From: Campylobacterales bacterium
Lineage (GTDB): Bacteria; Campylobacterota; Campylobacteria; Campylobacterales; Sulfurimonadaceae
Direction of reading: 5' to 3'
DNA: 64,000 nt
NCBI GenBank assembly: GCA_026390115.1
Contig: JAPLGO010000012.1
Span: 1 to 64,000, forward strand
A program made the position numbers and the translations under genes. Positions within the stretch are counted from its first letter, which is position 1; each line of letters opens with the position of its first letter. Shown one piece after another: positions 3,558 through 50,106 of this stretch. The notes beneath the pieces were generated by a model, which saw only the letters and a list, made by a program, of their open reading frames with translations, was not told the DNA's origin and made no database searches.

Positions 3558-5703
3558 CGCTTTGTAATTTTTTTAGTGCTACATCTTTTTCTTCATCGAT
3601 GAAAACTTTTCCTTCATTCATAACTATGACTCTGGTGACAATTTTGAGAAGATTCATTTTCTGCGTCACAAGTAGAGCAGTTTTCCCTTTCAAATTTTCA
3701 TCCAAGCTCTCGATAAGTCTGGACTCCGATAGCTGATCCATGGCATTACTAGGCTCATCCATGAGCATAATAGGAGAATCAAGTAAAAATGCACGAGCAA
3801 TTCCGATGCTTTGTTTTTGACCGCCCGACAATCCTTGTCCTCTTTCACCTATCGGCATTTCATAGCCCTTTGGATGTTTTTTCACAAACTCTGAAGTTCC
3901 GCTAATAATTGCAGCTCGCAACATGTCACTATCAGAACAGTGTGAAGCACGATAGGTAATATTATCTTTCACTGTTCCGCGAAAGAGCATTATATCTTGG
4001 GAAACATATCCGATACTTTTTCTTAAATCGGCAGGGTCTATCTGATTAATATCTATGCCATCTATCAATATCTGCCCTGAATCAGGTTCATAAAGACCTA
4101 AAATAAGCTTTTGAATAGTACTTTTACCGGAACCTATACGACCTATAATCGCTACATGCTCTCCCGGTTCTATAGTGAAGGAGACATTTTTGAGTATCTG
4201 AAAACCTGTTTTTGGGTATGAAAATGTTACATCGATAAACTCGATTCTCCCGCTGAAATTCGGTCTTGTAACAAACTTTTTGCCAGCCGGTCTCTCACTC
4301 GGCTGAGATAATATGTCGTTTATAGCATCATAAGAAGCTTTCGTGTTTTCATAATTGGTGAGTATTCCGGCAACCTGTCCCATCGGTCCAAGAGCTCTTC
4401 CTGTTAAAATTCCTATTGCAATTAATCCACCCATTGAGAGTTTAAAATCTTGAATAAGATAAACGCCGTAAATAATTATCATAACTCCATTTAGTTGCAT
4501 AAAAAGCAGTGTTATAGTTGGAATAGAAGCTGATAAAAGACGTGTTTTCATACTTTTTGTAGCTATTTCACCGGTTGATTCTTCCCATTTCCATTGTACC
4601 TGATTGAGAGTGCCCAAAGTTTTGAGTGTTTCGATATTGTTAAGTGTCTCAATTAAAATTGAACTTTTTTGTGCGCCTGCCTCTTTTGTATCTTCTATAC
4701 TGGCTTTTAAAGATTTTTTAAGAATGAGTGCATAACCAATAATCAAAAAAGTAGTTAGGAGAGGAATAGCTACTATTGAACCACCGATATACCAAATAAT
4801 GACTAAAAATATTATTGCAAACGGAAGATCTATAATTGCAGCCATTGTAACATTTGTTAAGAAACTTCTAATATTGTCAAAATCTTTTAAGTGACTTGAA
4901 AATGCACCTACAGATGTTGGAATGTGTGACATTTTTAAGTCAAGAACTTTTTCAAAAATAATAGATGCCATGATAACATCACTTTTTTTTGCAGCACTTT
5001 CCAGTAGATGCGTTCTGGTGAATTTTAAAAATGTATCAATGAAATAGATAATAATAATACCGATTGCAAACACCCAAAGTGTTTCAATAGCATTATTCGG
5101 GACGACTCTATCGTAAACATTCATTGTAAAAAGGGGAGAAGCAACTACAAAAATATTTATCAGTAAAGTTGCATATATGACATCTCTATAAATTCCAAAA
5201 GAGAGTTTTAATGTACTCCAAAACCAATGTTTCTGGTCTAAATGAAGAGTTCTTGTATTATCATCAACATACTCAAAAGCTTTTTTTATCATAAAGCCAA
5301 AGCCGATATACTCATCTTTTAGTACATCTATCTCAACCCATTGCTCAACAGCCTCTTCGGTTGGCATGATTATTTTAGCCTCTAGTCCATCATCACTGAA
5401 TCTGTCAAGAATGCATGAACCTTGATTGGAGAGCAGAATTATCATAGGAAGCTGTAGGGGAGAGATTTGATCGAGAGGTCTTCTTAGTATGCTTGATTTG
5501 AGTCCGGCTCTCTCTGCTGCGCGCGAGAAGAGCCCTTTTGCATTATTTATAGAAAAGAGTTCCGGTGTCTCTTTTCCTATTTCTATAGGTAATCCGGCAG
5601 TCAAAGCCTCTGCAGAAAATGGTTTATGATAAAGTTTTGTAAACAGAACCAAGCAGTCGAGCAAAGAGTCTATTTTTAAATTATCTGCTTTTGTTAAGAA
5701 CAT
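3532..5703 (-). CDS. Type I secretion ABC exporter with C39-like domain
   Basis: Inner-membrane ATPase/permease of a type I secretion system, 723 residues. Residues 1-130 are a C39 peptidase-like domain (LLDCLVLFTKLYHKP, SAEALTAGLP) of the kind found in LapB/LssB-type adhesin exporters; the domain appears to lack the usual catalytic arrangement and probably docks the substrate. Membrane segments follow at about 165-440. The nucleotide-binding domain carries Walker A GRIGSGKST, signature LSGGQKQ and Walker B IMLMDEPSNAMD. It lies 26 bases after the TolC-OmpA gene and overlaps hlyD. The adhesin-like protein encoded opposite is the likely cargo. Confidence 0.92.
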   Translation of the reverse strand: MFLTKADNLKIDSLLDCLVLFTKLYHKPFSAEALTAGLPIEIGKETPELFSINNAKGLFSRAAERAGLKSSILRRPLDQISPLQLPMIILLSNQGSCILDRFSDDGLEAKIIMPTEEAVEQWVEIDVLKDEYIGFGFMIKKAFEYVDDNTRTLHLDQKHWFWSTLKLSFGIYRDVIYATLLINIFVVASPLFTMNVYDRVVPNNAIETLWVFAIGIIIIYFIDTFLKFTRTHLLESAAKKSDVIMASIIFEKVLDLKMSHIPTSVGAFSSHLKDFDNIRSFLTNVTMAAIIDLPFAIIFLVIIWYIGGSIVAIPLLTTFLIIGYALILKKSLKASIEDTKEAGAQKSSILIETLNNIETLKTLGTLNQVQWKWEESTGEIATKSMKTRLLSASIPTITLLFMQLNGVMIIIYGVYLIQDFKLSMGGLIAIGILTGRALGPMGQVAGILTNYENTKASYDAINDILSQPSERPAGKKFVTRPNFSGRIEFIDVTFSYPKTGFQILKNVSFTIEPGEHVAIIGRIGSGKSTIQKLILGLYEPDSGQILIDGIDINQIDPADLRKSIGYVSQDIMLFRGTVKDNITYRASHCSDSDMLRAAIISGTSEFVKKHPKGYEMPIGERGQGLSGGQKQSIGIARAFLLDSPIMLMDEPSNAMDQLSESRLIESLDENLKGKTALLVTQKMNLLKIVTRVIVMNEGKVFIDEEKDVALKKLQSGGKKIEES

Positions 5704-37804: not shown

Positions 37805-40139
37805 AAAAAGCTTTCTTATTTATGGAGTTGTTCAGGGCGTTGGATTCCGCCCCTTTATTTATAAGATAGCATGCAAAAATAAACTTTGCGGATTTGTGAA
37901 AAATGATAGTAACGGAGTGGAGTTGGAAGTTGAAGGGTATGAAGAGAATATAAATATATTTGAAGAGCAACTTCACTCACAACTCCCGCCACTTGCAAGA
38001 GTTGATACAATAGAGACTAAAGAGTTGGTACCGCTTTATGAACAAAGTTTTGAAATTAGAGAGAGTTCAATTAACACACAAAATGCAAAAACGGCTCTAA
38101 TTTCACCCGACATTGCTACATGTCACGAGTGTTTGGAAGATATAAAAAAAGAGGGCAAATATCACAACTATTTTGCCACAAACTGCACAAACTGCGGGCC
38201 AAGATATAGTATTGTAAAAACTGTACCCTATGACAGAATCAATACTTCGATGGATAAGTTTGAGATGTGTCAATCGTGCGCCGTGAGCGCTAGCGAGGAA
38301 GTGCCCTTGGGGTGCGCCGTGAGCGCTAGCGAGGAAGTACTCTTGGGGTGCTCGGATGAGTATAAAAATCCAAACAGCAGAAGATACCATGCACAGCCAA
38401 TTTCTTGTAATTATTGTGGACCGAGTTTAAAGTTAACGGTAAAAAATGAAGAGTTGAATATCAGTGATAATAAAAAGTTTAGAGAGCTCGCAAACTTTAT
38501 AAAAGAGGGTGCAATTGTTGCCATAAAAGGCATCGGCGGCTTTCACATTGTTTGTGACGCTACAAATGATGAGGTCATTTCAAAGTTAAGAGCGTTCAAA
38601 AACAGACCTACAAAACCATTCGCAATAATGTGCAAAGACATTGTGCAGATAAAATCTTTGGCATGTGTGAATGAGAAAGAGGAGGAGTTGCTAACTTCAA
38701 AAGAAGCACCGATAGTTATTTTGAAAAAAAGTGTATTTTCCTACATAAAACTATCAAAGTTTTTGGCTCCAAATATAGACAGAATAGGGTGCATGTTAGC
38801 CTACACGCCTCTTCATCATCTTTTATTTAAGCATTTACACACTCCAATAGTTGCCACAAGCGCGAACTTGGGAGATGAACCTGTCATAACTAAAATGGAA
38901 GATATAATTGCCAAGCTTTCGTTTGTTTCTATTGTTTTAGATTTTGACAGAGATATTTTAAACGGGGTGGATGATTCTCTTCTTCAAGTCATTAATAAAA
39001 AAACTCAGACATTAAGACTAGCGCGCGGATACACTCCAAAGGTTATAAAACTCCCCTTTAAATCAGAGAAAAGAATTCTTGCAGTTGGTGCAAATCAAAA
39101 AAACTCTATTGCTTTTGTAATAGATGATAATATCATACTCTCCCCGCATATAGGCGATTTAAACAGTCTCAAAGCTTTTGAATATTTTGAGCGCACAATT
39201 GATACTTTCAAAAGATTTTATGATTTTGAACCGGATATTATTGTGCATGACAAACATCCAAATTACGAAACAACGAAATGGGCGAAAAAGCAGCAAAAAG
39301 TGCTTGTAGAAGTTGGTCACCATTTGGCACACATTTACGCATGTATGGCTGAGTTTGGGTTGAGCGGTGATTACTTAGGATTTAGTTTTGACGGAACCGG
39401 TTATGGTGAAGAGAAGGTGAATGGCGAAGCCAGAGAATCTGCCTTGGGGCATGGAACCCTTTGGGGCGGGGAGGTTTTTGTAGGCGATGTCAGAAAATAC
39501 CACTTCAAACCAATAAAATTGTTAGGCGGTGAAAAAGCGATAAAAGAGCCGAGACGCGTGGCGCTCAGCATGCTTTTTGATGCACTGAGTTTAGAAGAGG
39601 TGCAAGAGCTTGATTTGGCATGCGTAAAAGAGTTTTCACCTGTCAACATAAAACTACTGCATCAAAGCCACATAAAAAATCTAAACGCACCGCAAAGCTC
39701 TTCTGTAGGCAGAATGTTTGATGCCATCGCTTCATTTTCAGACATTGCCCAAATTATAAGCTACGAGGGAGAAAGCGGACTTTTATGTGAGAGCTACTAC
39801 GATGAAGATAAAATTAAAAGTTTCAATTACGCTATAACGGATGGTGTCATTGATATTAAAATAGTAGAATATATTTTAAATAATAAGTTTGATAAAAAAG
39901 AACTCAATAGCATGTTTATAAATACTCTGGTAGAAATTATAATAAGTATCTCAAAAAAAGAAAAACTAGAAGTCATTCTCAGCGGTGGGGTGTTTCAGAA
40001 CAAAACTCTTCTTGAACTTGCTGAAAATAGATTAAAAAAAGAAAATATCACTTGTTTTTACCAACAAAACAGTGCAATTAATGATGGTGGAATTGCCCTC
40101 GGGCAGGCATATTTTTGCATCAAAAACAATATAGGATAA
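37797..40139 (+). CDS. hypF: Carbamoyltransferase HypF, with an in-frame 24-residue insertion
   Basis: HypF (780 residues) makes the carbamoyl group that becomes the CN ligands of the hydrogenase iron. Domains: acylphosphatase (GVVQGVGFRPFIYKIA), two zinc fingers (CHECL...CTNCGP and CQSC...CNYCGP), YrdC-like (GFHIVCDATN) and Kae1-like (VEVGHHLAHIYACMAE, LSGGVFQNKTLL). Between the Cys pairs of the second finger lies an extra tandem CAVSASEEVPLG/CAVSASEEVLLG that relatives lack; the usual following text resumes at DEYKNPNSRRYHAQP. It adds two Cys. The frame is intact, so the protein may still work. Confidence 0.95.
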   Translation: MIRKSFLIYGVVQGVGFRPFIYKIACKNKLCGFVKNDSNGVELEVEGYEENINIFEEQLHSQLPPLARVDTIETKELVPLYEQSFEIRESSINTQNAKTALISPDIATCHECLEDIKKEGKYHNYFATNCTNCGPRYSIVKTVPYDRINTSMDKFEMCQSCAVSASEEVPLGCAVSASEEVLLGCSDEYKNPNSRRYHAQPISCNYCGPSLKLTVKNEELNISDNKKFRELANFIKEGAIVAIKGIGGFHIVCDATNDEVISKLRAFKNRPTKPFAIMCKDIVQIKSLACVNEKEEELLTSKEAPIVILKKSVFSYIKLSKFLAPNIDRIGCMLAYTPLHHLLFKHLHTPIVATSANLGDEPVITKMEDIIAKLSFVSIVLDFDRDILNGVDDSLLQVINKKTQTLRLARGYTPKVIKLPFKSEKRILAVGANQKNSIAFVIDDNIILSPHIGDLNSLKAFEYFERTIDTFKRFYDFEPDIIVHDKHPNYETTKWAKKQQKVLVEVGHHLAHIYACMAEFGLSGDYLGFSFDGTGYGEEKVNGEARESALGHGTLWGGEVFVGDVRKYHFKPIKLLGGEKAIKEPRRVALSMLFDALSLEEVQELDLACVKEFSPVNIKLLHQSHIKNLNAPQSSSVGRMFDAIASFSDIAQIISYEGESGLLCESYYDEDKIKSFNYAITDGVIDIKIVEYILNNKFDKKELNSMFINTLVEIIISISKKEKLEVILSGGVFQNKTLLELAENRLKKENITCFYQQNSAINDGGIALGQAYFCIKNNIG
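38277..38348 (+). repeat. GC-rich 36-bp tandem duplication inside hypF
   Basis: Units 38277-38312 and 38313-38348 match at 34 of 36 bases. Each holds GTGAGCGCTAGCGAGG, with the palindromes AGCGCT and GCTAGC. The G+C is much higher than in the surrounding gene. Both units keep the frame and code for 12 residues. Confidence 0.9.
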
Positions 40140-43787: not shown

Positions 43788-44077
43788 TGTGCCTTTCAAT
43801 ACCGAGTAAAGTTGTAAAAATAAACAAAGAAAACAACATGGCAACGGTTGACACCATGGGTGTTCAGAGGGAAGCAAGTTTAGGTTTAATGGGTGAAGAT
43901 GATGTGAAGATAGGCGATTATGTACTTCTGCACATCGGTTTTGTTATGAATAAGATTGATGAAGAAGATGCACTTCTTTCTCTTGAAACATACAGACAAA
44001 TCATAGAAGCTATGGATGAAGAAGATAGACAAAGAGCGATTTTAGAAGGGGATGAATGTCCTAATAGAGGTGATTAA
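43787..44077 (+). CDS. hypC: Hydrogenase maturation chaperone HypC
   Basis: Small chaperone of 96 residues that starts MCLSIPSKVVKI, with the essential Cys2. It carries the Fe(CN)2CO unit between HypD and the large subunit. It precedes hypD by one base. Confidence 0.96.
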   Translation: MCLSIPSKVVKINKENNMATVDTMGVQREASLGLMGEDDVKIGDYVLLHIGFVMNKIDEEDALLSLETYRQIIEAMDEEDRQRAILEGDECPNRGD

Positions 44078-44078
44078 A

Positions 44079-45221
44079 ATGGGACTGGAACTTAAAAATC
44101 TTTATGATGATTTTAGAGATGCAGCGACCATTAAGGCGTTCGCAAGAGTCATAAAAGAAGATGCTAAAAAGTTAGAAAGAAACATCAATATCATGGAAGT
44201 TTGCGGTGGACATACACATACTATTATGAAATATGGACTTCCTCAGCTTTTGCCTTCAAATATAAAGTTTATTCACGGTCCCGGCTGTCCTGTTTGTATT
44301 ATGCCAAAAGAGCGAATTGACCATGCCTATGTTTTGAGTATGCAACCGGATGTTATTCTTGTGACTTTGGGCGACATGATAAAAGTGCCCGGAAGTAACG
44401 GAAGCCTTCAAGATGCGAGAAGCAAGGGGGCAGATGTGCGTTTTGTTTACTCTCCGCTTGAGTGTATAAAAATTGCAAAAGAGAATCCCTCAGCCAAAGT
44501 GATATTTTTTGCCATCGGTTTTGAGACGACTACGCCCATGACGGCTGCACTTCTTGATGCAGTGATAAAACAAGGTATAAAAAATGTTTTTTTTCATATA
44601 AACCATGTAACAGTTCCGGAGGTTATGAAAGAGCTTATAGATTCCAGAGATATCCATGTCGACAGTTACAATAACAAAATAGATGCATTTCTTGGACCTT
44701 CACATGTCAGTGTAATAAGCGGAAGCAAGATTTATGAAGAGTTTCCAAGAGACTATAATCGTCCGGTAGTTGTCGCAGGATTTGAGCCGGTTGATGTTAT
44801 GCAGGCAATAAGCATGATAGTAAAACAGTTTATAGAAGGTAGATGCGAGCTTGAAGTGGAGTACAAAAGACTTGTAACCTACGATGGAAACATTAAAGCC
44901 CAAGAGCTGGTAAACAGGTATTTTGAAAAAACGGACCTTTTTAAATGGAGAGGCTTGGGCAATATCCCTAAAAGCGGACTCAAACTCAGGGCAGAGTTTA
45001 AAGCGTACGATGCAGAAGTTATTTACAAAGATGTTCTGCCTCTTCAAGAGATAGAAGACCATAAGCTGTGCATATGCGGAGATATATTAAGAGGTATGGC
45101 GAATCCGCCGGAGTGTACTATTTTTGGAACTGCATGTAAACCGACCAGTCCAGTGGGAAGCTGCATGGTAAGCAGTGAAGGTGCATGTGCAGCGTACTAT
45201 AAATACGGAAATCTTTTATAA
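44079..45221 (+). CDS. hypD: Hydrogenase maturation protein HypD
   Basis: Iron-sulphur scaffold of 380 residues on which the Fe(CN)2CO group is built. Conserved motifs are MEVCGGHTHTIMKYGL, FIHGPGCPVCIMPKERID, AIGFETTTP, and the C-terminal 4Fe-4S ligands (CICGDILRG, TPECTIFG-like PPECTIFGTAC). The ATG at 44079 follows GAGGTG; an ATG at 44052 lies in hypC. Confidence 0.96.
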   Translation: MGLELKNLYDDFRDAATIKAFARVIKEDAKKLERNINIMEVCGGHTHTIMKYGLPQLLPSNIKFIHGPGCPVCIMPKERIDHAYVLSMQPDVILVTLGDMIKVPGSNGSLQDARSKGADVRFVYSPLECIKIAKENPSAKVIFFAIGFETTTPMTAALLDAVIKQGIKNVFFHINHVTVPEVMKELIDSRDIHVDSYNNKIDAFLGPSHVSVISGSKIYEEFPRDYNRPVVVAGFEPVDVMQAISMIVKQFIEGRCELEVEYKRLVTYDGNIKAQELVNRYFEKTDLFKWRGLGNIPKSGLKLRAEFKAYDAEVIYKDVLPLQEIEDHKLCICGDILRGMANPPECTIFGTACKPTSPVGSCMVSSEGACAAYYKYGNLL

Positions 45222-45232
45222 GTGAAGATATT

Positions 45233-46417
45233 ATGGATACTACCGAGTGGCTCAAAAAACTAAAAGAGTTTAAAAAATATGTTAATAACTTTTTAAAACA
45301 TCAAAAAGAGAGCATTGAAGATATTCATAAACTCAGAGTGATGAGCAGAGAGCTGTTTTCATTACTTGGAACTGATGAGCCTTTTTCTAGAGGTGTGAAA
45401 AAAGTAATTAAAACAAGCAACAAGGTAAGAGATATTGATGTGTTTTCTGAGATTTACCTCAAATCTTTGCCAAAACAATATCTCAACGAACTGGACACAA
45501 AAAGTCTAATAAAGTCTGTACATGAGAGTAGAAAAAAAGAGATAGGCAACCTGCACGCTTATCTCAAAACTTTAGTTATACCGGAGAGTGCGGAGTTTCA
45601 CCATGAGAATCAAGAGATTGATGTAATAAATGGTGAGGATATAAAGTTAGATAAGGAAGAGTTACACACATATAGAATTTATATAAAAAAAATATTATTC
45701 ATGGAAAAAAATAGTTCTGCAAAAGATGAAAAAAAGATTAAAACGCTGAACAAAATAAAAGATATTTTAGGCACTATAAATGACAACTATAATGGAGTGA
45801 AAGAATTGAGCAATTTTGATATAAAGCCAAATATATTCAAAAAAATAGAAATGTTCACCCAAAAGCAAAATTTAAAATTATTTAAACAATTCAAATATTT
45901 TAATCAAAAGGTAAAGAAGGGGTCTTCGATGAAAAAACTGTACATAATCAGACATGCAAAATCAAGCTGGGAAGAGATTTCTCTGGATGATTTTGAGCGA
46001 CCTTTAAACAAAAGAGGCAAAGCAGATGCTCCTTTGATGGGAAGTAAACTCAAAGAAAAAAGAGTCATGCCCGATCTAATATTGTCAAGTCCTGCACTAA
46101 GAGCAAAAACCACGGCAGAGATAATTGCAAAACAACTAGAGTTTAAAAAAGAGATTGTGTTTGATGAAAATATCTATGAATCAAGCGTGAGTGAACTCCA
46201 TAAAATAGTGAGTGAAATAGATGATAAAAACAGGGTCGTATTTTTGTTTGGACATAATCCAAGTCTCAACATGCTTGCCCAAAATTATCTAAATTTTAAC
46301 GAAAACATCCCGACATGCGGGGTCGTGGAGATAGAGTTTGATTGTGACAGTTGGGCGGATATAAGTGCAGAAAATGCAAGGTTGGTTTCGTTTGATTATC
46401 CGAAGAAAGAGAAGTGA
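45233..46417 (+). CDS. CHAD domain fused to SixA-type histidine phosphatase
   Basis: Protein of 394 residues with two modules. Residues ~1-230 form a CHAD domain (IHKLRVMSRELFSLL; ELHTYRIYIKKILFM), an inorganic polyphosphate-binding helical bundle rich in Lys. Residues 233-385 form a SixA-like phosphatase: LYIIRHAKSSWEE (catalytic His), LILSSPALRAKTTAEI and FLFGHNPSLN. An internal ATG at 45929, with AAGAAGGGG before it, could also start the phosphatase alone. It separates hypD from hypE. A polyphosphate-linked phosphatase is an inference. Confidence 0.85.
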   Translation: MDTTEWLKKLKEFKKYVNNFLKHQKESIEDIHKLRVMSRELFSLLGTDEPFSRGVKKVIKTSNKVRDIDVFSEIYLKSLPKQYLNELDTKSLIKSVHESRKKEIGNLHAYLKTLVIPESAEFHHENQEIDVINGEDIKLDKEELHTYRIYIKKILFMEKNSSAKDEKKIKTLNKIKDILGTINDNYNGVKELSNFDIKPNIFKKIEMFTQKQNLKLFKQFKYFNQKVKKGSSMKKLYIIRHAKSSWEEISLDDFERPLNKRGKADAPLMGSKLKEKRVMPDLILSSPALRAKTTAEIIAKQLEFKKEIVFDENIYESSVSELHKIVSEIDDKNRVVFLFGHNPSLNMLAQNYLNFNENIPTCGVVEIEFDCDSWADISAENARLVSFDYPKKEK

Positions 46418-46460: not shown

Positions 46461-47891
46461 ATGATGAATAAAAATAAACAGTTTGAAATTAATGAAGCTG
46501 ATATTTTTAGTAATGACAAACTAAAAAGAATAGCTGCAATAGAAAATTTATCTGATCTAATAGTTTCTACAAAGGAGGCATTTACTCTTGGTATTAATGC
46601 TGATTGGGGTGCTGGCAAAACAACTTTTGTAAAACTTTGGCAAAAATATCTCAAAAAAGAACATAATGTAAATAGTATTTATTTTAGTGCTTGGGAAGAT
46701 GATTTTTCAAAAGAACCTTTAATATCAATACTTGGAGAGATAAATAAGTATATTTCAGATAATTTTGAAAATACAAGTGAAGTTGCACAAAAATTTGACA
46801 AAGTTAAAGAGTTTGGTGGAAAAGTTTTAAAACGAGGAATACCAGCTTTTGTAAAAGGTGCAACAAGTGGTTTACTTGATATAGATAAAGGTTTAGAAGA
46901 TGCAATCGGAGCAATCAGCGAACAAGCTACTAAAGAGTTGATTGATAAATATTCTAAAGATAAAGAAGTTACACAAAAATTTAAAGAAGCTATCTCAGAG
47001 TTGCTAGAAAATATAGATAATACAAAACCATTTGTGGTTTTTATTGATGAACTGGATAGATGCCGTCCTCTGTATGCAATAGAACTGCTTGAGAGAGTAA
47101 AACATATATTTGGGATTGATGGTTTAATATTTGTATTGTCAATTGACAAAAAACAACTTTCAGAATCAATTAAATCACAATATGGAAATATTGATGCAAA
47201 CAGTTATCTAAAACGCTTTATTGACTTAGAATACAATCTTACCAACAATAATATTGATGAATTTTGTGACAATCTTTATTATTCAGTTTATGAACTAGAT
47301 AATGTTTTGACTTCAAAAGAGATAAAAAAAGAATCTAGAGAATACAATGAACTTTCAATATTAAAGTATTTGGTAAGTTCAATGAAATTGAATTTACGTG
47401 AAGTTGAACAAGTATTTATTCAAATAAATATAATCTTTAAAACAATAAATCCTAGATTATTTGAAATGCATTTTAAGGTTATAGTTTTTTTTGTTGTTTT
47501 AAAGTTAAAAAATTCAAGGTTGTACGATGAATTAGTTAATCAAGAAACATCTGCCGAAGAAATACTTAACAATATTTTAGACAACAAAGAAGAAGCGGAT
47601 ATGCAGAAGAGATATATTTATCAATATTTTAAAATTCTAATAAAAGCTATAGTATTTGCTACTTCTAAGGCGGACGATGAGATGAATTTAGAAATAAAAA
47701 AGTAAAATGATATACTTAAAACTTTAGAAAACGGAACAGATATATATAAAGAACAAAATCAGTTAGTTCGTATAATTACAAATGGTGAAAATCATGGAAT
47801 TTATAGGTTGAATCGAGCTATTGATACAGTGTTAAAAAAGATTGACTTTGTAGATAAATTTAATTTTGATGAGATAAAAGAGAGTAATTAA
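46461..47891 (+). pseudogene. KAP-family P-loop NTPase, broken by an in-frame stop
   Basis: KAP NTPase with Walker A NADWGAGKTTFVKLW, the FSAWEDD motif and Walker B FVVFIDELDRCRP, followed by LDLEY-like YLKRFIDLEYNL. The frame stops at TAA 47703-47705 after EIKK, then goes on in the same frame through NDILKTLENGTDI and INRAIDTVLKKIDF-like text to TAA 47889-47891 (476 codons). One base change would explain this. The first 414 residues hold all ATPase motifs and may remain active. KAP proteins often occur in phage-defence and mobile islands. Upstream is CHAD-SixA; its end overlaps the hypE remnant start (TAATG). Confidence 0.75.
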
Positions 47892-47968
47892 TGAACAAAA
47901 CAATCAGCTTGGCATGTGGAAACGGTGGAGAAGAGAATAATGAACTTATCTCTCAAGTATTTTACAAA
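47891..47968 (+). pseudogene. 5' remnant of hypE (26 codons)
   Basis: Bases 47891-47968 match the first 78 bases of the intact hypE at 49108 at 69 positions, and 8 of the 9 differences are silent. The residues agree (MNKTISLACGNGGEENNELI) but for Gln/Lys at residue 22. The match ends abruptly at codon 26 and the frame stops ten codons later. It starts on the KAP stop codon as TAATG. Confidence 0.93.
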
Positions 47969-48002
47969 CCATGCAAGAGTCAAAACAAAAAGCTTTAAAA
48001 CA

Positions 48003-48866
48003 ATGAACAACATTATAACTGATAACCATACTATCCAAAACAAAATATTTACCGTTAGAGATGTGCAAGTAATGCTTGATGCAGATTTGGCGGAGCTTTA
48101 TGGCGTGGAGACAAAACAGCTTAACAAAGCCGTGAGTAGAAATTTGGATAGATTCCCTGAAAGTTTTAGATTTCAGTTAACACAACATGAGTTTGATAAC
48201 TTGAGGTTCCAAAATGGAACCTCAAGTGAACATGGCGGTAGAAGATATTTACCTTTTGTATTTACAGAACAAGGAGTGTCAATGCTCTCAGCTGTTCTTA
48301 GAAGCACAACGGCGGTGCAAGTTAGCATAAGAATTATTGAAACATTTGTGGTAATGAGAAGATTTATAACTCAAAATGCAGGAATATTTGAAAGATTTGA
48401 AAGGATAGAGCAACGACTATCAATCCATGATGAAAATTTCAATAAAATATTTGATGCCATAGAAGACAAAACCATAAAACCAAAACAAGGCATTTTTTAT
48501 AATGGACAAATTTTTGATGCGTATATTTTTGTCAATGACTTGATTAAAAGTGCAAAAAATACAATAACTCTTTTTGACAACTACATAGACGAATCGGTTT
48601 TAACACTGCTTAGCAAAAACCAAACAGTAAAAATAACTATTTATACAAAAAATATCTCGAAACAATTGAAACTAGATGTAGAAAAATACAATAGTCAGTA
48701 CAAACAAATAGAACTTAAAAAATTTGACCTATCTCACGATAGATTTTTACTGGTAGATGACGAAGTCTATCATATAGGAACATCTCTAAAAGATTTAGGT
48801 AAAAAATGGTTTGCATTTTCAAAAATGGATAAAGCAAGCTTTGAGATAATGGAGCGGCTGAAGTGA
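48003..48866 (+). CDS. ORF6N-domain protein with PLD-like C-terminus
   Basis: Protein of 287 residues. Residues ~10-110 are an ORF6N (KilA-N-like) DNA-binding domain: FTVRDVQVMLDADLAELYGV, FTEQGVSMLSAVLRS. Residues ~175-285 hold a PLD-like half: LFDNYIDESVLTLLS and HDRFLLVDDEVYHIGTSLKD. The domain is common in phage and mobile islands, where it may regulate or nick DNA. ATG 48003 lacks a ribosome site; ATG 47940, inside the hypE remnant, has GGAGAAGAG 6 bases before it and would add 21 residues. Its insertion parts two copies of hypE sequence. Confidence 0.8.
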   Translation: MNNIITDNHTIQNKIFTVRDVQVMLDADLAELYGVETKQLNKAVSRNLDRFPESFRFQLTQHEFDNLRFQNGTSSEHGGRRYLPFVFTEQGVSMLSAVLRSTTAVQVSIRIIETFVVMRRFITQNAGIFERFERIEQRLSIHDENFNKIFDAIEDKTIKPKQGIFYNGQIFDAYIFVNDLIKSAKNTITLFDNYIDESVLTLLSKNQTVKITIYTKNISKQLKLDVEKYNSQYKQIELKKFDLSHDRFLLVDDEVYHIGTSLKDLGKKWFAFSKMDKASFEIMERLK

Positions 48867-49107
48867 GAAGTTTGGAATATTCAAAAATAAGTCAGACAGT
48901 GTCTGACAAATTGAGTGTTGCAAAAGTGCCATTGGCTGTGGCACAAAATAAAGATGGGCAAAATAGGCAACTGTTAGTTGCACAAAGTATTTGAACTCAT
49001 ACATAAGAATAGCCCATGAAAATATATGAAAAAAGTAATGTGCAAAAAAAGTATATTTCAAATTTTGACAATTTTATTATAGATATAAAAATAATGGAGA
49101 AAACTAT
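48867..49107. other. Gap before hypE with a palindrome and a weak 43-codon frame
   Basis: A GTG at 48863 opens a 43-codon frame (to 48994, reading LSVAKVPLAVAQNKDGQNRQ) that overlaps the ORF6N stop. I do not recognise it and give it low trust. A palindrome lies at 48891-48907, and the A/T-rich end carries the hypE ribosome site (AATGGAGAAA). Confidence 0.4.
48891..48907. promoter_or_regulatory. 17-base perfect palindrome
   Basis: GTCAGACA-G-TGTCTGAC, 25 bases after the ORF6N stop and inside the weak 43-codon frame. It may be an operator or an element boundary. Confidence 0.45.
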
Positions 49108-50106
49108 ATGAACAAAACAATTAGCTTAGCATGCGGAAACGGTGGGGAAGAAAATAATGAACTTATCTCCAAAGTTTTTTACAAGGCGTTTAAAAACGAG
49201 ATATTAGAAAAAAGTGAAGATGCGGCGATTATCCATGGTGGTGCGTTGGCGTTTTCTACTGACAGTTTTACGGTTTCACCTCTGTTTTTTGCAGGTGCAG
49301 ACATAGGTAAACTTGCAGTTTGCGGTACATGTAACGACCTTGCTATGATGGGTGCGCAACCGAAGTATCTTACATGCAGTGTGATTATAGAAGAGGGTTT
49401 TGAGACGAGAGAGCTTGAGCGGATTGTGCGAAGTATGAAACAAGAGCTTGAAATTAACGGTGCTATTGTTGTAAGCGGCGATACAAAGGTTGTTCCACGC
49501 GGAAGTGTTGACAAGATTTTTATCAACACTAGCGGAATCGGTGAAGTTTTAAGAAAAGGTATCAGTTCTAACAACATCAGCGAAGATGACCTCATTCTTG
49601 TAAACCGTGATATCGGCTGTCACGGTGCTACTATCTTTGCTGCACGTGAGGGTATTGAGATGAACAGTCCGCTCAAAAGTGATTGTGAGTCACTTTTTCC
49701 TCAGGTAAAAGCTCTTTTGGATGCCGAGATAAAAATAACTGCCATGCGAGATGCAACTAGAGGCGGGGTAAGTGCTGTTTTAAATGAGTGGGCGAAGCAG
49801 TCAAATATTTGCATAGAAATTGAAGAAGAGAAAATTCCTGTAAGCGATGAAGTAAACGGCATTTGTGAAATGCTTGGTTTTGAAGCGGCTGCTTTGGCGA
49901 ATGAGGGTACTTTTGTATTGGCTGTTAAAAAAGGGGATGCCGATAGGGCAATAGAAATTTTAAAAACATTTGAGAACTGCTCAAAAGCAACAATAATCGG
50001 TAAAGTGACAGATGCACATTTGAAAAAAGTGATTTTAAACAGCAGTTGGGGAACAAAAAGATTCTTAGATACTCCAAGCGGTGAGTTGCTTCCTAGAATC
50101 TGCTAA
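49108..50106 (+). CDS. hypE: Hydrogenase maturation protein HypE
   Basis: ATP-dependent dehydratase of 332 residues that turns the carbamoyl group from HypF into thiocyanate on its last Cys. It shows the AIR-synthase fold: FTVSPLFFAGADIGKLAVCG, MRDATRGGVSAVLNEWA, and the C-terminal PRIC with the acceptor Cys. It lies 4 bases before hypX. Confidence 0.97.
   Translation: MNKTISLACGNGGEENNELISKVFYKAFKNEILEKSEDAAIIHGGALAFSTDSFTVSPLFFAGADIGKLAVCGTCNDLAMMGAQPKYLTCSVIIEEGFETRELERIVRSMKQELEINGAIVVSGDTKVVPRGSVDKIFINTSGIGEVLRKGISSNNISEDDLILVNRDIGCHGATIFAAREGIEMNSPLKSDCESLFPQVKALLDAEIKITAMRDATRGGVSAVLNEWAKQSNICIEIEEEKIPVSDEVNGICEMLGFEAAALANEGTFVLAVKKGDADRAIEILKTFENCSKATIIGKVTDAHLKKVILNSSWGTKRFLDTPSGELLPRIC

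What the first reader, a model, noticed from the sequence alone, without database searches (positions are those of the whole stretch)
47891..49185. Truncated hypE copy and an ORF6N-PLD gene inserted before an intact hypE
The first 78 bases of hypE occur twice (47891-47968 and 49108-49185), 69/78 identical, with 8 of 9 changes silent. Between them is an ORF6N/PLD-like gene and a 17-base palindrome. The remnant starts on the KAP stop codon (TAATG), as if hypE once followed KAP directly. A mobile module may have entered hypE and been repaired by a related hypE, or a homologous hypE was brought in. The many silent differences speak against a very recent tandem duplication.
Basis: partly seen in the sequence, partly recalled or inferred. 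Interest (0 to 1): 0.8.

Follow-up and report, generated by a model that had tools for sequence, protein, structure and literature searches.

The report
Gene-start scar at a defence-gene hotspot
A broken copy of the start of a hydrogenase-maturation gene marks where a bacterium probably picked up a foreign (perhaps anti-virus) gene beside the intact gene; similar scars in a few related bacteria show that this spot has been loaded this way more than once.

Summary
Confirmed: the first 78 nt of hypE occur twice (69/78 identical, 8 of 9 changed codons silent). It is not a lone oddity. The hypD-hypE junction is an insertion hotspot: of 103 distinct loci, 44 have the genes within 30 nt and 48 carry >300 nt between them, part of it defence-type (Fic, McrBC, DUF1016/YhcG, KAP). 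Three other occupied sites also hold a second hypE start between two cassettes (G401, G419, a Sulfuricurvum), each beginning at an ATG and fading near nt 45-50. G419 also carries a duplicated hypD 3' end (112 nt, 88%). No recombinase ORF lies in the window's insert. Best reading: cassettes are added by one-sided homology with a related donor's hypE or hypD, the other end joining illegitimately and leaving a gene-end scar. The "17-base palindrome" lies in a DUF1016-gene fragment; KAP has lost its last 61 codons to a stop. I also found a dispersed word, TGGCATGTGGAA, hundreds of copies in some genomes of this genus, with hallmarks of a DNA uptake sequence. It occurs in both hypE starts but does not demonstrably mark the joints.

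The parts
44079..45221 (+). hypD, left border of the hotspot (the listed ORF opens at 44052; start taken as the later ATG)
   Evidence: ORF list; synteny in relatives
45233..46417 (+). CHAD + SixA-type histidine phosphatase ORF, a cargo gene also present at this site in G401/L129 and, as separate or single ORFs, in others
   Evidence: PF00300 3.3e-11, PF05235 5.4e-6
46461..47705 (+). KAP P-loop NTPase ORF (414 aa), PADLOC candidate family PDC-S20; cut short by TAA at 47703-47705
   Evidence: PF07693 5.5e-39; PDLC04959 4.5e-122; homologues with frames of 474-475 aa
47706..47891 (+). rest of the KAP reading frame after the premature stop, ending in a TAA that overlaps the remnant's ATG (TAATG)
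   Evidence: sequence
47891..47968 (+). truncated hypE start (26 codons), the scar
   Evidence: 69/78 identical to 49108-49185, 8 of 9 changed codons silent; also found by the full-length hypE search, 3.6e-10
48003..48866 (+). ORF6N-domain gene (287 aa from this ATG; the listed ORF opens at a GTG at 47916 inside the remnant), PADLOC PDC-S05
   Evidence: PF10543 1.7e-34; PDLC04869 2e-122
48875..49071 (+). spacer with short matches to other cassette genes: 48875-48911 and 48938-48999 to DUF1016/YhcG genes, 49026-49071 to an ORF directly before hypE in L099
   Evidence: blastn E 5e-8 to 2e-6; Pfam of the L054 and L156 partners; ORF in L099
48891..48907 (.). 17-nt palindrome GTCAGACAGTGTCTGAC, inside the first DUF1016-like fragment
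49108..50106 (+). intact hypE (332 aa)
   Evidence: PF02769 5e-26, PF00586 3.3e-23
47909..47923 (+). copy of the dispersed word, TTGGCATGTGGAAAC, inside the hypE remnant (codons 7-11)
49126..49140 (+). corresponding word in intact hypE, TTAGCATGCGGAAAC (one mismatch to TTGGCATGYGGAAAY)

Best explanation
The hypD-hypE junction in Sulfurimonas and relatives is a hotspot where accessory genes, many of them defence-type, are stacked. A new cassette arrives on DNA from a related cell in which it already sits next to its own hypE (or hypD). The donor hypE crosses over homologously with the resident hypE (inferred); the other end joins illegitimately inside the resident hypE (inferred). The result is resident cassette - truncated resident hypE start - new cassette - intact hypE with a donor 5' end. 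The mirror event at hypD leaves a hypD 3' end. Here the older state was hypD-[CHAD/SixA]-KAP-hypE, and the ORF6N-bearing cassette (with DUF1016-like debris behind it) was added, cutting the resident hypE at about nt 78. The intact outer genes are kept by selection for hydrogenase maturation (inferred). Shown: duplicated gene ends at four occupied sites, their position between cassettes, the divergence of the window's pair, empty sites in relatives, no recombinase ORF in this insert. Inferred: the route (natural transformation is likeliest) and which copy is the resident one.
For: Two hypE starts with 8 of 9 changes silent, so both evolved as working hypE before they came together. Empty sites: 44 of 103 loci within 30 nt, and L166 (outside that count), whose hypE start is the closest seen to the remnant, 72/78. 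Second hypE starts between cassettes at 3 more sites: G401/L129 (McrBC | scar | nucleotidyltransferase-like ORF + HepT), G419/L156 (PifA/KAP-like | scar | DUF1016), L111 (DUF6166 | scar | KilA-N). Mirror scar in G419: last 112 nt of hypD, 88%. Control: 11 hypE and 4 hypD segments of 90 nt searched in 50 intervals (141,545 nt): hypE 1-90 gave the 4 scars and 1 rejected hit, hypD last 90 gave 1 strong hit (3.6e-22), hypE 271-360 gave 4 weak hits (E 0.013-0.04), the other 12 gave none. Cargo differs between sites.
Against: Only 4 of 48 occupied sites show a hypE scar, so most cargo settled another way or scars are lost. By the profile alone G419's scar (E 0.022-0.029) is no stronger than the rejected L103 hit or the weak 271-360 hits; it rests on direct comparison with its own hypE (1.9e-9). 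The donor origin of the intact 5' end is not shown: the 78-nt tree is unresolved (AU p = 0.43) and intact hypE shows no clear identity jump at nt 78. In G401 and G419 the first 33 nt differ by 1 silent and 2 replacement codons, which says little. Micro-homology at the window's joint cannot be tested without the donor. In the own genome comEC matches only residues 168-418 of G401's 421, so transformation may not work there now.
Confidence: 0.62

Rival explanations
1. The whole nested arrangement was built in another lineage and imported here in one piece by ordinary double crossover in hypD and hypE, as in minimal mobile elements. The scar then records an older event elsewhere.
For: Fits a flank-homology hotspot without recombinase. 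In G307 an array with two hypE scars lies away from hypE, beside a UvrD-type helicase gene, so scarred arrays can persist as blocks; an McrB-like gene followed by a scar is seen in both G401 and G307.
Against: The window remnant is hardly decayed (1 replacement in 26 codons), which favours a fairly recent truncation; G401, the closest full-length hypE (0.907 of nt), has the same CHAD-SixA gene but other cargo.
Confidence: 0.2
2. A site-specific integrating element uses the 5' end of hypE as its attachment site and restores the gene on insertion, as some integrases do at protein genes (recalled).
For: Repeats begin at the gene start and the gene is restored; three scars fade within a narrow stretch (about nt 45-50).
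Against: No integrase among the insert's ORFs; endpoints differ (about nt 33 in G307, 45-50, 78 here); the window's repeats are 88% identical; cargo differs; a mirror scar exists at hypD.
Confidence: 0.08
3. In-place tandem duplication of the hypE start, later invaded by the ORF6N gene.
For: The AU test does not reject sister copies (p = 0.43).
Against: 8 of 9 changes silent although one copy would have been free to decay; the remnant is nearer to other genomes' hypE (L166 72/78, L097 and L093 71/78) than to the intact copy (69/78).
Confidence: 0.05
4. Copies of the dispersed word TGGCATGTGGAA act as short homologies at which cassettes are joined into hypE.
For: hypE codons 7-11 hold the word; both scars in G307 stop right at its end and pass into the leader of an ORF6N gene.
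Against: In G401 and G419 weak similarity to hypE continues past the word to about nt 45 (11 and 9 of 15 nt), the window joint lies 45 nt beyond it, and L111's hypE has no word. The two G307 scars are copies of one another over 108 nt, so this is one joint, not two.
Confidence: 0.05

Closest known systems
Homology-facilitated illegitimate recombination (HFIR) in naturally transformable bacteria (PMC3240628: abstract and passages seen)
   Same: Foreign DNA enters with homologous crossover at one end and illegitimate joining at the other; that leaves this kind of one-sided gene-end scar.
   Different: The accounts seen are laboratory ones; here the process is inferred from natural loci, with repeated use of one operon junction and both of its borders.
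Minimal mobile elements of Neisseria (PMC2649163: passages seen; fuller definition recalled)
   Same: Interchangeable cassettes between conserved genes, exchanged horizontally, no recombinase needed (the last recalled).
   Different: Cassettes here are, at some sites, added in series with gene-end scars rather than only swapped.
DNA uptake sequences: DUS of Neisseriaceae, USS of Pasteurellaceae (PMC3630211: passages seen)
   Different: Other phylum and other sequence; copy number varies from 0 to 576 inside one genus; effect on uptake untested.

Membership tests
HFIR product | truncated copy of the anchoring gene left beside an intact one, with foreign DNA between | tested here: met
   hypE start scars at four sites, hypD end scar at one
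HFIR product | homologous crossover in the anchoring gene, seen as a donor/recipient mosaic | tested here: inconclusive
   no clear identity jump in intact hypE, tree of 78 nt unresolved
HFIR product | a few bases of micro-homology at the illegitimate joint (recalled) | tested here: inconclusive
   donor of the joint unknown; only the G307 joint could be set against free-standing ORF6N leaders
HFIR product | occurs during DNA uptake by transformation | not testable with these tools
   comEC found in 10 of 10 genomes tested, but the own copy lacks its N-terminal part
Minimal mobile element | conserved flanking genes with different cassettes between them in different genomes | tested here: met
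   103 hypD-hypE loci: 44 within 30 nt, 11 with 31-300 nt, 48 with >300 nt and varied cargo; compared between species, not strains
Minimal mobile element | no recombinase in the cassette | tested here: met
   window insert: only CHAD-SixA, KAP and ORF6N genes among the ORFs of 80 aa or more. For the other sites 25 of 54 matched Pfam families were displayed, none a recombinase, so that part is incomplete
Site-specific integrative element | integrase gene and identical attachment repeats | tested here: not met
   no integrase ORF; repeats 88% identical; endpoints differ between sites
DNA uptake sequence | word strongly over-represented, on both strands | tested here: met
   GGCATGTGGA is the top 10-mer, 434 to 997 times expectation from base composition, in samples of G401, G307 and G419; whole-genome counts up to 576 with backward-pattern controls 0-2
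DNA uptake sequence | arises by point substitution, not by insertion | tested here: met
   38 of 185 copies could be aligned; 37 are gap-free, 8 of these with the word in both sequences and 29 differing by substitution, 1 has a gap. The comparison set of 20 loci included genomes with some copies (own, G451, G503), and local alignments favour gap-free cases
DNA uptake sequence | raises uptake of DNA that carries it; specific receptor | not testable with these tools
   needs transformation assays; receptor not searched for

The most novel reading that the evidence does not exclude
Part of the genus Sulfurimonas uses TGGCATGTGGAA as a genuine DNA uptake sequence, the first in Campylobacterota as far as my searches of the held library show, and this kin-biased uptake feeds defence cassettes into operon-junction hotspots such as hypD-hypE, where one-sided integrations leave datable gene-end scars.
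Probability: 0.42. Interest if true: 0.82.

Novelty: new variant of a known kind. Interest (0 to 1): 0.52.

Why it matters
Gene-end scars record the order in which accessory and defence genes were stacked, and by what kind of recombination, without any mobile-element machinery in the insert. That makes 'how are defence islands built without integrases' testable at one operon in many genomes. The uptake-sequence-like word, if functional, would add a third bacterial lineage to a requirement that a passage of PMC3630211 calls unique to Neisseria and the Pasteurellaceae.

Tried and rejected
Rejected: the L103 hit to hypE 1-90 is the start of an unrelated ORF, MKKKTVSLVLGSGGARG (patatin-type by eye). 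Four hits to hypE 271-360 (E 0.013-0.04) were taken as chance and not followed up. In the comparison of each locus's own hypE start with its interval, matches of 11-31 nt in seven further loci were dropped (L094, L108, L116, L130, L134, L149, L154; best E 0.002; L094's 19 nt cover hypE 3-21). TGCAAAAGAG, the top 10-mer of the window, is not an uptake word: ATGCAAAAGAGA has 8-17 copies in each of six genomes, word-rich or not. I first thought that scars stop exactly at the word; identity past it in G401 and G419 and the shared 108 nt in G307 removed that claim. The tree of the 78-nt copies has no power. On a hypE protein tree of 39 rows the word-rich genomes do not form one clade: seven fall together, G307 and the pair own genome + G401 lie outside it, and one of two G503 copies lies elsewhere; hypE may itself have been transferred. 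The spacer 48861-49107 has no second copy in the own genome. The literal word found only unrelated papers among the 10 listed of 83. The 400 kb of own genome used were chosen in part because they hold word copies, so that enrichment is biased upward; the whole-genome counts are not. In the window itself the 10-mer occurs only twice.
Full report
Observation. The window (G000:C18:1-64000) holds a hyp operon with 3.9 kb between hypD and hypE. The first 78 nt of hypE are present at 47891-47968 and 49108-49185, 69/78 identical, 8 of 9 changed codons silent. A dead copy would show about 19-26% silent changes; P for 8 or more of 9 is 1.2e-5 to 1.5e-4. So most of the difference accrued while both sequences were starts of working hypE genes, which points to two lineages whose sequences were brought together afterwards.

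Genes before and between the copies. Upstream lie a CHAD-SixA ORF and a KAP NTPase. The KAP ORF stops at 47703-47705, but its frame runs on for 61 codons to the TAATG that overlaps the remnant; two homologues at 63-64% identity have open frames of 474 and 475 aa, so KAP looks truncated here. The 61-codon piece alone matched no PADLOC family. Between the copies is an ORF6N-domain gene. KAP and ORF6N match the PADLOC candidate families PDC-S20 and PDC-S05; these are candidates, not tested defence systems. The spacer behind ORF6N holds debris: 37 nt at 89% and 62 nt at 79% to DUF1016/YhcG genes of G419 and G004, and 46 nt at 85% to an ORF of L099; in all three the matched gene lies directly before hypE. 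The reported palindrome is inside the first fragment.

The site in relatives. hypE gave a match in 42 of 60 genomes including the own one, a few of them only weak and partial, and 78 named loci were fetched. After removing duplicates I had 119 hypE starts, 103 with hypD upstream on the same strand: gap 30 nt or less in 44, 31-300 in 11, more than 300 in 48. The relative L166 (97% protein identity over the 111 residues on its contig) fell outside this count because its hypE is cut by the contig end; there hypD and hypE overlap. From the 47 occupied sites other than the window I scanned 114 ORFs of 140 aa or more: SixA-type phosphatase 17, aldo/keto reductase 11, Fic 10, McrBC 9, DUF1016 6, KAP 5, one NgoPII-type restriction enzyme, one cytosine methylase; PADLOC matches include SoFic 9 and PDC-S02 6. 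So cargo is partly defence-type and partly not. Only 25 of 54 Pfam families and 25 of 214 PADLOC models were displayed.

Scars recur. A profile of hypE nt 1-90 searched in the intervals finds the window copy (4.8e-17), L111 (4.5e-7), G401/L129 (0.0034) and G419/L235 (0.029), plus a false hit in L103 (0.028) and a reverse-strand hit at 0.26. Each accepted scar begins at an ATG right behind a cassette gene and is followed by another cassette and the intact hypE. The 30 nt before the two ATGs match in only 11-16 places. In the control, 10 other hypE segments and 3 other hypD segments gave no hit except four weak ones for hypE 271-360; the last 90 nt of hypD gave one, in G419, where 112 nt of hypD 3' end (88%) lie between ORFs that look like a restriction-modification cassette (a cytosine methylase by its motifs, read by eye) and the older cargo. 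So cassettes can be added at both borders.

G307 is a special case. Two hypE-start scars of 33 nt lie in an array that reads McrBC-like, scar, broken ORF6N, HTH, HipA, scar, DUF1016-like, next to a UvrD-type helicase gene, while hypD and hypE lie on other contigs (the McrBC-like and DUF1016-like genes are named by resemblance to L129 and L156). The two scars share 108 nt at 88%; the part after the hypE-derived 33 nt resembles the leader of ORF6N genes elsewhere. Its ORF6N fragments are 81-84% identical in protein to the window's. This is a draft genome, so the breaks could be assembly effects.

Mechanism. The pattern is what homology-facilitated illegitimate recombination leaves: one end homologous, one end illegitimate (PMC3240628, abstract and passages seen). 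The resident copy should be the remnant and the donor copy the intact start. Weak support: the remnant is nearer to L166 (0.923) than the intact start is (0.872), and intact hypE is 0.846 to L129 over nt 1-78 but 0.90-0.92 over the rest. Neither is decisive, and the tree is not. Import of a ready-made block remains the main rival.

An uptake-like word. hypE codons 7-11 of the remnant read TTGGCATGTGGAAAC. The 15-mer TTGGCATGTGGAAAT with at most one mismatch occurs 576 times in G307, 559 in G441, 546 in G419, 347 in G436, 346 in G459, 279 in G401 and 53 in the own genome; 17 of 135 genus genomes have 25 or more, 108 have 0-3, and backward controls are 0-2. [quoted passage not shown] flanks carry little information; copies lie on both strands, inside and outside ORFs, with 10 inverted pairs within 50 nt in the three samples. 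Of 185 copies, 38 could be aligned to other loci: 37 gap-free (8 with the word in both, 29 with substitutions), 1 with a gap. So the word mostly arises by substitution, unlike a mobile repeat. These are properties of DNA uptake sequences (PMC3630211, passages). ComEC is present in 10 of 10 genomes tested, word-rich and word-poor alike, so it does not discriminate; the own genome's copy matches only residues 168-418 of G401's 421, which may go with its lower word count. Searches for 'uptake sequence' with 'Sulfurimonas' found 0 papers; two related searches listed nothing on it among the 12 shown of 135 and of 43. This covers only the held open-access library. Function is untested.

Verdict. The event looks like a new variant of known processes; the recurrence of gene-end scars at one junction and the uptake-like word are the parts worth following.

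Noticed in passing
genus-wide; window 47909, 49126, 51314: Dispersed word TGGCATGTGGAA with the hallmarks of a DNA uptake sequence, up to 576 copies per genome (15-mer, at most one mismatch) in part of the genus.
   Followed up: partly
L327:3355-4119 (G000:C15): Own-genome comEC matches only residues 168-418 of G401's 421; G419, G307 and G366 match nearly the whole length; the stretch just upstream has stops in all three frames shown.
   Followed up: partly
window 47703-47705: TAA cuts the KAP reading frame by 61 codons; the two nearest homologues have longer open frames.
   Followed up: yes
window 38277-38351: HypF carries an internal tandem peptide repeat (CAVSASEEVPLG / CAVSASEEVLLG); a similar stretch (CAESVSEEVLLGC) is in the UvrD-type helicase of L199. 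May be an in-protein repeat family.
   Followed up: no
L235 reversed, 720-831 and 5540-5651: hypD 3' end duplicated (112 nt, 88%) across what looks like a restriction-modification cassette in G419.
   Followed up: yes
L032, L033, L047, L049, L184, L199: A similar leader (about TATTACAAAATGACATA) precedes ORF6N genes in several genomes and another ORF in L184; it is not seen before the window's ORF6N gene.
   Followed up: no
G439: Four hypE-start pattern matches on three contigs, perhaps several hyp loci or a mixed bin.
   Followed up: no
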